Shown piece by piece: positions 38,870 through 61,188 of a stretch of DNA of 64,000 nt. The translations under genes were made by a program, and so were the position numbers. Position 1 is the first letter of the stretch. Each line of letters opens with the position of its first letter. The notes beneath the pieces were generated by a model, which was given only the letters and a program-made list of their open reading frames with translations, made no database searches and was not told the DNA's origin. The stretch comes from Bartonella alsatica (GTDB lineage: Bacteria > Pseudomonadota > Alphaproteobacteria > Rhizobiales > Rhizobiaceae), in contig NZ_CP058235.1 in the NCBI RefSeq assembly GCF_013388295.1, positions 846,001 through 910,000 on the forward strand. Reading direction: 5' to 3'.

Positions 38870-39553
38870 ATGAACCGCTATACCCTTTTAATTGTTGAAG
38901 AAGATAATGATCTGCGCCCTATTTTGGTAGAACAATTGCAAATCCATAAGGAATTTGAAGTATTCCAAGCAAAAACAGCTGAAGCAGGCATAAAAATAAC
39001 TCAAGAGAAAAATATAGATCTCGCTATTTTTGGTATTGGACTGTTTGATCTTGCTAGCCGTGAAGCCGTTAAACAATTACGCTCTCAAGGATTTCGCTCT
39101 CCCATTATCATGATCACAAATCATGATACAGACTGCGATACCCTTTTAAATCTTGAAGTAGGTGCCAATGACTATGTAAAAAAACCCTTCCGCTTTGCGG
39201 TGTTATTGGCACGAATCCGTGCTCAACTGCGCCAATATGAGCAAAATGACGATGCAATTTTTTACATCGGACCCTATACTTTTAAACCCGGGCAAAAACT
39301 TCTCATTGATCAGCAAAACAACGAAATTCGTCTTACAGAAAAAGAAGCAGCCATTCTAAAATACCTCTATCACACCAATGACAAAATCGTGAGCCGTGAA
39401 ACACTATTAGAAGAAATTTGGGGCTACAATGAAAACATCATCACTCATACCTTAGAAACCCATATCTACCGTTTGCGACAAAAAATCGAAAAAGATCCCT
39501 CCAATGCACAAATTCTCATTACTGAGCAAAACGGTTATCGATTAAACCTTTAA
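38870..39553 (+). CDS. CenR/OtpR-like OmpR-family response regulator lacking the phospho-acceptor Asp
   Basis: The 227-residue protein has a receiver domain (1-118) and an intact winged-helix domain (about 128-227, with TEKEAAILKYLY and THTLETHIYRLRQKIEK). Sequence and its place beside the transpeptidase remnant resemble CenR of Caulobacter and OtpR of Brucella, regulators of envelope genes. In the receiver the acidic pocket (E10, E11, D12), T83 and K105 are kept. The position five after D50, normally Asp, is G55 (codon GGT), and the following loop reads GLFDLAS instead of the usual GLPD-hydrophobic-DG. Phosphorylation in the normal way looks impossible. No kinase gene is adjacent. A good AAGGA site precedes the ATG. 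Confidence 0.85.
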   Translation: MNRYTLLIVEEDNDLRPILVEQLQIHKEFEVFQAKTAEAGIKITQEKNIDLAIFGIGLFDLASREAVKQLRSQGFRSPIIMITNHDTDCDTLLNLEVGANDYVKKPFRFAVLLARIRAQLRQYEQNDDAIFYIGPYTFKPGQKLLIDQQNNEIRLTEKEAAILKYLYHTNDKIVSRETLLEEIWGYNENIITHTLETHIYRLRQKIEKDPSNAQILITEQNGYRLNL

Positions 39554-60400: not shown

Positions 60401-61150
60401 TCACGGCTTTAAAGCACTAGAAACCTTATCAAGACCACGATTAAAAACATAATGTTTTTCATAAACATCAACCGTGGGAGGCATACGATTTTCTTCAAAA
60501 AAATCATAACCTTTCTTAAGCATAACCCAGAATTGATAATGGGGATCAGATCTATGACGTACCATATTAGCATCGGTCATGCGAAAAGGAAAAGCATGCA
60601 ACTGAAATTCTTTCTGTCCCCCTCTAAAAGCATCCCGCGCAAAAGCATAAATCTGTGCCATATTTTTATCACTCATAGAGTAACAACCAGCAGAAAAGCA
60701 AGAACCATGCACCATAAGATTACTTCCTGTTCGGCCATTCGCTTGATCATAAAGGTTGGGAAATCCTATATTAAAAGCAAGATAATATTTTGAATAAGGA
60801 TTCATTTGATTTGCACTAACGGTGTAAAAACCTTCTGGTGTTTGAAGATCACCTTCCTTATATTTAGGTCCAAGCTGACCTGACCATTTACAAATGCTAT
60901 AACGTGCCAACAACACAAAAGCCCCTGATCGGGACTGCTTCCAAATTTCGGCAACATTCTCTTTCTTAAAAAATCGCATCATAATCGGCGCATAAGGATC
61001 AATATTATGTAGAACCATTCTATTTCGGATTTCTTGGGGAAGTGGCTGCTCAACTTTAGCACGGATAGAAGCTGGCAACCTTCCCTCACATGCCGTCAGT
61101 ACTCCTATTGTAAACAATATACATACTGTGAAGAACCTGTTGAAAACCAT
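60401..61150 (-). CDS. L,D-transpeptidase family lipoprotein (YafK-like)
   Basis: The 249-residue protein has a lipoprotein signal with lipobox LTAC (C21) and a YkuD-type catalytic domain. The active-site segment HGSCFSAGCYSMS runs from H148 to S160, with C156 as the nucleophile. It resembles murein L,D-transpeptidases of the YafK group. The ATG at 61150 has GGAG 9 nt upstream. An in-frame TTG at 61165 coincides with that site. This is an intact member in contrast to the dead copy at 38260-38755, which is of a different subtype. Confidence 0.88.
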   Translation of the reverse strand: MVFNRFFTVCILFTIGVLTACEGRLPASIRAKVEQPLPQEIRNRMVLHNIDPYAPIMMRFFKKENVAEIWKQSRSGAFVLLARYSICKWSGQLGPKYKEGDLQTPEGFYTVSANQMNPYSKYYLAFNIGFPNLYDQANGRTGSNLMVHGSCFSAGCYSMSDKNMAQIYAFARDAFRGGQKEFQLHAFPFRMTDANMVRHRSDPHYQFWVMLKKGYDFFEENRMPPTVDVYEKHYVFNRGLDKVSSALKP

Positions 61151-61188
61151 AAAATAAAACTCCAATACCTCCCCTCACAAAAAATGAC

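What the first reader, a model, noticed from the sequence alone, without database searches (positions are those of the whole stretch)
38870..39553. CenR-like response regulator without its phospho-accepting aspartate
In the receiver domain the acidic pocket (E10, E11, D12), T83 and K105 are kept, but the residue five after D50, where OmpR-family regulators have the phosphorylated Asp, is G55 (codon GGT, one base from GAT). The loop after it is also altered: Phe for the usual Pro, and Ala-Ser for Asp-Gly. The DNA-binding domain looks fully intact. CenR/OtpR controls envelope genes in related bacteria and is normally phosphorylatable. Here it would act as a phosphorylation-independent or constitutive factor, or be on the way to loss. 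The flanking transpeptidase is dead, hinting that the envelope circuit has been rewired.
Basis: partly seen in the sequence, partly recalled or inferred. Interest (0 to 1): 0.7.

Follow-up and report, generated by a model that had tools for sequence, protein, structure and literature searches.

The report
Envelope regulator without its phosphorylation site
A bacterial cell-envelope regulator called CenR has lost the one residue that normally switches it on by phosphorylation in many Bartonella species, yet the gene is kept under selection and was found missing or broken only where its likely partner regulator EssR is missing or broken too, which suggests it now works as a switch-free partner protein.

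Summary
In detail: the window (a 1.66 Mb Bartonella genome) encodes an intact 227-aa CenR with Gly at 55, the phosphoryl-accepting position. It is not an oddity of one genome. Of 71 genomes of the genus, 69 have a CenR match and 67 an intact frame; 39 of these 67 lack Asp55 (35 Gly, 2 Glu, 2 Ala), and so do records named B. henselae and B. quintana. All 28 loci read from other genera of the family keep it. The gene is not plainly decaying: in the main Asp-less clade dN/dS is 0.48 around the phosphorylation loop but 0.14 over beta4-alpha5 and 0.17 in the DNA-binding domain. In Brucella, CenR binds the regulator EssR by its receiver and speeds EssS-to-EssR phosphotransfer (PMC10746171). EssR is found in 70 of 71 genomes, with its Asp in 70 of 70. 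All 4 genomes with CenR missing or broken also have EssR missing or broken; three other regulators are intact there. Best reading: CenR became a phosphorylation-free DNA-binding partner of EssR. In the window's genome the EssS kinase gene is broken too. The 'dead flanking transpeptidase' is not supported. New variant of a known kind (aspartate-less receiver), with a natural transition series. No function was tested.

The parts
38870..39553 (+). cenR: OmpR-family response regulator, 227 aa, aspartate-less receiver
   Evidence: ORF and Pfam; one 57-67% identical match in each of 142 of 149 genomes from other genera of the family
38888..39220 (+). receiver domain (residues 7-117), fold retained
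   Evidence: Pfam Response_reg; AlphaFold2 mean pLDDT 86, below 50 at residues 90-95 in the alpha4 region; single receiver domains in the PDB match at TM 0.88-0.90 normalised by target
39032..39034 (+). codon 55, GGT (Gly) in place of the phosphoryl-accepting Asp
39035..39058 (+). altered loop after beta3 (IGLFDLAS); Gly57 and Phe59 occur in none of 38 other intact CenRs of its clade
39101..39223 (+). beta4-alpha4-beta5-alpha5 (residues 78-118), containing the face by which Brucella CenR is predicted to bind EssR; most constrained part of the receiver
   Evidence: dN/dS 0.138 against 0.476 for beta3-loop-alpha3; the interface is from PMC10746171 (structure prediction, plus two-hybrid mapping to the receivers)
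39320..39544 (+). winged-helix DNA-binding domain (residues 151-225), intact
   Evidence: Pfam Trans_reg_C; dN/dS 0.166 over residues 136-227

Best explanation
It is the Bartonella CenR, turned into an aspartate-less receiver. It can no longer be switched by phosphorylation at residue 55. It most likely works as a constitutively competent DNA-binding protein that pairs, through the alpha4-beta5-alpha5 face of its receiver, with the phosphorylatable regulator EssR, supporting EssR and acting at shared envelope promoters. The signal would enter through EssR, or in the window's own genome, where the EssS kinase gene is broken, through another phosphate donor or through protein levels alone. Shown here: loss of the acceptor, its spread over the genus, continued constraint on the beta4-alpha5 part and the DNA-binding domain, relaxed constraint around the phosphorylation loop, retention of EssR with its Asp, joint loss of CenR and EssR. 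Inferred: the pairing itself, its effect on EssR, and the genes controlled.
For: Asp55 is missing in 39 of 67 intact Bartonella CenRs but present in 28 of 28 loci read from other genera (28 of the 142 matched there). In the Asp-less clade (37 genomes) dN/dS is 0.476 at beta3-loop-alpha3, 0.138 at beta4-alpha5, 0.166 in the DNA-binding domain; none of 100 permutations of receiver sites reached the contrast between the N-terminal half (0.394) and beta4-alpha5. In 12 Asp-keeping genomes of the same half of the tree the loop is at 0.172 while the other two are alike (0.162, 0.140). EssR keeps its Asp in 70 of 70. Of the 39 Asp-less CenR genomes, 37 have an intact EssR and 33 an intact EssS. CenR is missing (no match at 1e-40) or broken in 4 of 71 genomes, by 4 separate changes on an rpoB tree, and EssR is missing or broken in all 4 (Fisher p 3.6e-5 ignoring the tree), while three other regulators are intact there. 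In B. ovis, CenR and EssR bind by their receivers, CenR speeds EssS-to-EssR transfer, and D55A binds EssR about as well as wild type (PMC10746171, sections 14, 16).
Against: No binding or function was tested, and I found no paper on CenR in Bartonella. In B. ovis, D55A and D55E rescued the macrophage defect only partly, so the Asp does matter there (PMC10746171, section 10). In B. ovis D55E weakened EssR binding, and two Bartonella genomes have Glu55. EssR is broken while CenR is intact in 3 genomes (G012, G031, G037), so CenR is not simply an EssR helper. Four losses are too few for a tree-aware test (3 independent pairs cannot reach 0.05), and one of the four, G015, is less sure: its frame breaks within the first codons and a public record (P0069) reads a 220-aa protein without them. 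The loop contrast between Asp-less and Asp-keeping sets holds in 93 of 100 bootstraps only, and residues 4-48 are equally relaxed in both (0.342, 0.302). By invariant columns alpha4-beta5-alpha5 is less conserved in the Asp-less set (13 of 33) than in the Asp-keeping set (19 of 33). The alpha4 region of the model is poorly predicted, and no Asp-bearing control model could be run.
Confidence: 0.58

Rival explanations
1. CenR works alone as a constitutive transcription factor (like HP1043, CosR or ChxR), homodimerising through alpha4-beta5-alpha5 without phosphorylation; EssR is incidental.
For: The constrained face is also the usual homodimer face of the family (PMC12632262, passages); EssR is broken while CenR is intact in 3 genomes; CosR and an entry titled atypical orphan phosphorylation-independent regulator (2hqr, recalled as HP1043) are among the structural matches, next to many ordinary regulators.
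Against: In the 4 genomes where CenR is missing or broken EssR is too; B. ovis CenR showed no self-interaction in two-hybrid (PMC10746171, section 14).
Confidence: 0.22
2. The gene is in slow decay: the kinase input went first, then the phosphorylation site, and the rest will follow.
For: CenR missing or broken in 4 of 71 genomes; EssS broken in 10 of 70 examined (two of them, G030 and G045, also show a split rpoB frame and may be sequencing errors); the window's loop has extra changes; CenR dN/dS is higher in the Asp-less clade (0.239) than in the 13-genome outgroup clade (0.021).
Against: Asp-less CenR persists with an intact frame in 37 genomes of one clade with dN/dS 0.14-0.17 in two regions; a 14-genome basal group, 12 of them with Asp, is nearly as relaxed overall (0.202).
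Confidence: 0.14
3. CenR is still regulated by another input at the same pocket or elsewhere (another modification, a ligand, or phosphorylation of another acid).
For: K105 is invariant (67 of 67) and the first acid is kept in all 39 Asp-less proteins.
Against: The second acid is Asn or Ala in 7 of 39 and residue 55 drifts among Gly, Ala and Glu (6 synonymous steps against 6 departures from Gly, one of them to Asp and one in a broken gene), which argues against a preserved new site.
Confidence: 0.05
4. Sequencing or assembly artefact.
For: None beyond the one-base difference from an Asp codon.
Against: Asp55 is lacking in 39 of 67 genomes, and 39 of the 120 homologues listed have Gly55.
Confidence: 0.01

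Closest known systems
CenR of Brucella ovis (OtpR of B. melitensis), with EssR-EssS
   Same: Same family by the criteria testable here; no CenK known; EssR and EssS kept alongside in most Bartonella; D55A still rescues plate stress phenotypes in B. ovis (PMC10746171)
   Different: Brucella has Asp55 (as reported in the paper) and needs it for full fitness in macrophages; most Bartonella of one large clade have lost it; the window's genome also has a broken EssS gene
CenK-CenR of Caulobacter, Rhodobacter, Sinorhizobium
   Same: Same regulator family with the same domains
   Different: There CenK is the kinase of CenR: R. sphaeroides D56A takes no phosphate (PMC9275681, passages read), and deletion of cenK abolishes srlA promoter activity in S. 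meliloti (PMC9561847, passages read)
Aspartate-less receivers / pseudo-receivers (ChxR, RitR, HP1043, CosR, WhiI, CmrT)
   Same: Receiver fold kept, key phosphorylation residues replaced, DNA-binding domain kept
   Different: A change inside one genus, with Asp-keeping sister species; Gly type, which the 2015 survey names as the one among the frequent substitutions without a characterised, solved example (PMC4395418, passages read)
BldM-WhiI heterodimer of Streptomyces
   Same: A regulator that needs no phosphorylation acting by pairing with another regulator (PMC12632262, section 19 read)
   Different: Another regulator family (NarL type, recalled); here the partner EssR keeps its phosphorylation site

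Membership tests
CenR/OtpR | Full-length similarity to alphaproteobacterial CenR, single copy | tested here: met
CenR/OtpR | REC plus Trans_reg_C domains | tested here: met
CenR/OtpR | Phosphoryl-accepting Asp at 55 | tested here: not met
   Gly55; 28 of 28 loci read from other genera have Asp
CenR/OtpR | Cognate kinase CenK in the genome | tested here: inconclusive
   Ten kinase loci in G000 (13 HATPase_c hits less three read as ParE, GyrB and MutL by eye): five sit beside a regulator gene, one lies near a PhyR-like regulator (recalled), one is CckA-like, three are orphans of 759-858 aa; no CenK reference was at hand
Aspartate-less receiver / pseudo-receiver | Recognised receiver domain without the phospho-Asp | tested here: met
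   Pfam Response_reg above cut-off with Gly55
Aspartate-less receiver / pseudo-receiver | Activity without phosphorylation | not testable with these tools
   needs the bench
EssR-EssS partner | EssR present with intact Asp and frame | tested here: met
   window's genome: EssR-like protein of 235 aa, intact, Asp63, 32% identical to CenR; that it is the Brucella EssR rests on gene order, length and Asp position as reported, not on a direct comparison
EssR-EssS partner | EssS kinase intact | tested here: not met
   in the window's genome the EssS frame is in 5 pieces; intact in 60 of 70 genomes examined
EssR-EssS partner | Physical binding of CenR to EssR | not testable with these tools
   reported for Brucella only (PMC10746171)

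The most novel reading that the evidence does not exclude
Across a large clade of Bartonella, a phosphorelay-regulated transcription factor has been converted into a phosphorylation-free partner subunit of another regulator, and in the window's species the kinase has gone too, leaving a kinase-less two-regulator switch that works by pairing and protein level. The genus then holds every step of the conversion: Asp kept, Asp replaced with the relay intact, Asp replaced with the kinase broken, and both regulators lost.
Probability: 0.35. Interest if true: 0.75.

Novelty: new variant of a known kind. Interest (0 to 1): 0.58.

Why it matters
How pseudo-receivers are activated and inactivated is an open question (PMC12632262, abstract, calls it a mystery). 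Bartonella offers closely related species with and without the acceptor in an otherwise constrained protein, plus a known partner in a related genus, so the claim that CenR acts through EssR and not through its own phosphorylation becomes testable by comparison. It also warns that the named B. henselae and B. quintana proteins annotated simply as response regulators lack the usual acceptor.

Tried and rejected
Considered and rejected: an alternative Asp in the beta3 loop (D50 and D60 are ordinary conserved positions); an assembly error; positive retention of Gly at 55 as a new function (6 synonymous steps against 6 departures in the clade by one parsimony reconstruction, no clear excess); a dead transpeptidase beside CenR. 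A first rpoB tree was discarded because eight loci were in reverse orientation; one search replaces it. The dN/dS runs gave no ratio in the table read and were replaced. The fraction of invariant columns per region does not separate the sets as dN/dS does and partly points the other way (see evidence against). Rows dropped: G045 is absent from the rpoB tree (frame split, not fetched) and from the outgroup dN/dS set; the Asp-less dN/dS set of 37 leaves out G034 and G018 (Asp-keeping), the broken G015 and G069, and the separate pair G042 and G014; EssR alignments use 64 and EssS 60 of 70 genomes. An Asp-bearing control model was not obtained. CenK could not be tested for want of a reference sequence. 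The Fisher figures were superseded; the one on EssS counted G005 without a search for EssS there. Not done: a search for weaker CenR remnants in G005 and G033 below 1e-40.

Full report
What is there. The ORF at 38870-39553 (+) encodes 227 aa with a receiver domain and an OmpR-type DNA-binding domain. Residue 55 is Gly, codon GGT at 39032-39034. Alignment with two solved family members without a gap there and an AlphaFold2 model (mean pLDDT 86, beta3 at 51-55) place it exactly at the phosphoryl-accepting position. The model matches OmpR/PhoB-type regulators, and single receiver domains in the PDB match at TM 0.88-0.90 normalised by target, so the fold is kept; only the alpha4 region (90-95) is below pLDDT 50. 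The window lies in G000, a single contig of 1,659,117 bases; that it is Bartonella follows from the named relatives. Eleven of the twelve receiver domains found in that genome keep the Asp.

How widespread. Of 71 genomes of the genus searched, 69 have a CenR match at 1e-40; G005 and G033 have none and G069 has it in two pieces. Residue 55 over the 69: Gly 35, Asp 28, Glu 2, Ala 2, Asn 1, Ser 1. The Asn (G015) and Ser (G069) proteins have broken frames, leaving 67 intact, 39 without Asp. G015 is the less certain case: the frame breaks within the first codons and a public record named B. doshiae reads 220 aa without them. The protein search scored 8,000 candidates and kept 7,998; of the 120 it lists, the window's own included, 77 have Asp, 39 Gly, one each Glu, Ala, Asn, Val. 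Named ones without Asp include B. henselae (Ala), B. quintana, B. vinsonii, B. clarridgeiae and B. koehlerae (Gly); named ones with it include B. bacilliformis, B. rochalimae, B. tamiae, B. ancashensis and B. rattaustraliani. From other genera of the family, 28 of 28 loci read, out of 142 genomes matched of 149 searched, have Asp, together with both acids, Pro59, Thr83 and Lys105.

When it happened. Parsimony needs three changes between Asp and not-Asp: two losses and one return. The AAT codon of G015 is one step from GAT but two from any Gly codon. The choice between these histories is open.

Is it decaying? In the 37 intact Asp-less proteins of that clade dN/dS is 0.239 overall: 0.342 over beta1-alpha2, 0.476 over beta3-loop-alpha3, 0.138 over beta4-alpha5, 0.166 in the DNA-binding domain. 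The contrast between the N-terminal half of the receiver (0.394) and beta4-alpha5 was reached in 0 of 100 permutations of sites; over 40 bootstraps the 5-95% ranges were 0.325-0.488, 0.091-0.203, and 0.124-0.224 for the DNA-binding domain. In 12 Asp-keeping genomes of the neighbouring lineages the loop is at 0.172, with the other regions about the same (0.162, 0.140); the loop difference, codon 55 left out, holds in 93 of 100 bootstraps. The N-terminal part (4-48) is equally relaxed in both groups (0.342 and 0.302), so relaxation there is not tied to loss of the Asp. In the 13-genome outgroup clade (bee-gut and tamiae type; the habit is recalled) everything is tight (0.021). For the window's own protein against six relatives dN/dS is 0.12-0.16 overall and 0.05-0.11 in the DNA-binding domain; only three residues are unique to it among 39 intact proteins of the clade, two of them in the loop. 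Invariant columns tell a less clean story: alpha4-beta5-alpha5 has 13 of 33 in the Asp-less set and 19 of 33 in the Asp-keeping set. The ratios are one-ratio models per region, not branch-site tests.

The partner. In Brucella ovis CenR has no known kinase; D55A and D55E both rescue growth under envelope stress; CenR and EssR bind by their receivers, predicted through alpha4-beta5-alpha5; CenR speeds phosphotransfer from EssS to EssR; D55E weakens binding and D55A does so not significantly; but both alleles only partly rescue growth in macrophages (PMC10746171; abstract and sections 7, 8, 10, 12, 14, 16, 18 read). In the window's genome an EssR-like regulator (235 aa, Asp63, 32% identical to CenR, the figure the paper gives for Brucella) lies at G000:C1 388277-388981, and the kinase gene after it is in five pieces. 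Over the genus EssR is found in 70 of 71 genomes at 1e-40 and its Asp is kept in 70 of 70; its frame is broken or truncated in six (G012, G015, G031, G033, G037, G069). EssS is broken in 10 of 70 genomes; two of these, G030 and G045, also have a split rpoB frame and may be sequencing errors. Of 39 genomes with an intact Asp-less CenR, 37 have an intact EssR and 33 an intact EssS; of 28 with Asp, 27 and 27. EssR and EssS in the Asp-less clade are tighter than CenR (0.136 and 0.082).

Joint loss. CenR is missing or broken in four genomes (G005, G015, G033, G069), four separate changes on the tree, and EssR is missing or broken in all four; the reverse does not hold (three further genomes have EssR broken and CenR intact). 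Ignoring the tree, Fisher p is 3.6e-5; with the tree only three independent pairs are available, nearly always in the same direction and never the other, which cannot reach significance. As a control, three other OmpR-type regulators are intact in these four genomes, in G012 and in the window's (18 of 18), so this is not general decay of regulators.

Mechanism. I take CenR here as a phosphorylation-free, DNA-binding partner of EssR. The loss of the acceptor, the constraint pattern and the joint loss are shown; the pairing and its effect are inferred from Brucella. In the window's own genome EssR cannot be served by EssS; another donor or protein level must do, or the branch is in decline. A B. 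henselae protein that UniRef names transcriptional regulator ompR is among the nearest relatives of the window's EssR (85% identity); a B. quintana paper cites work linking OmpR to endothelial invasion in B. henselae (PMC3595295, passages read), so the pair may matter in infection, but that these are the same gene is my inference.

Not in print, as far as the library shows. Searches for CenR with Bartonella and OtpR with Bartonella found no paper; searches for atypical, pseudo- or aspartate-less receivers with Bartonella, and for EssR/EssS/TcbR with Bartonella, listed none whose title or abstract bears on this (two reviews on hypoxia that hold both words were seen in the listing only). The aspartate-less receiver survey names Bartonella only in a list of taxa in its methods. 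The library holds open-licence papers only.

Noticed in passing
L118 (G000:C1:387977-390781), outside the window: The EssS histidine kinase gene next to EssR is in five open pieces in the window's genome, while intact in 60 of 70 Bartonella genomes examined.
   Followed up: yes
19 of 69 CenR proteins (e.g. L017, L037): A one-residue deletion in the beta1-alpha1 acidic loop of CenR (VE-DDDLR), in Asp-less members and in the two Asp-bearing genomes G018 and G034.
   Followed up: partly
L090 / P0104 (named B. ancashensis): Keeps Asp55 but the following loop is very different (DIASPNYNE), so an Asp at 55 need not mean a working site.
   Followed up: no
P0004: A protein named 'sensory transduction protein regX3-like [Rattus rattus]' is 87% identical to this CenR: probably a Bartonella contaminant in a rat assembly.
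   Followed up: no
L103 (G000:C1:1168120-1168443): A receiver domain in a 544-aa frame keeps its Asp but has IHP in place of the usual KP motif, so it may also be atypical.
   Followed up: no
window 60401-61165 (-): YkuD-family protein of 254 aa with HG...SAGCYSM; looks like the YafK/DpaA type rather than a dead L,D-transpeptidase (type recalled).
   Followed up: partly
G030 and G045 rpoB: rpoB frames are split in these two genomes, a sign of base errors in the assemblies; their broken EssS frames should not be trusted.
   Followed up: partly
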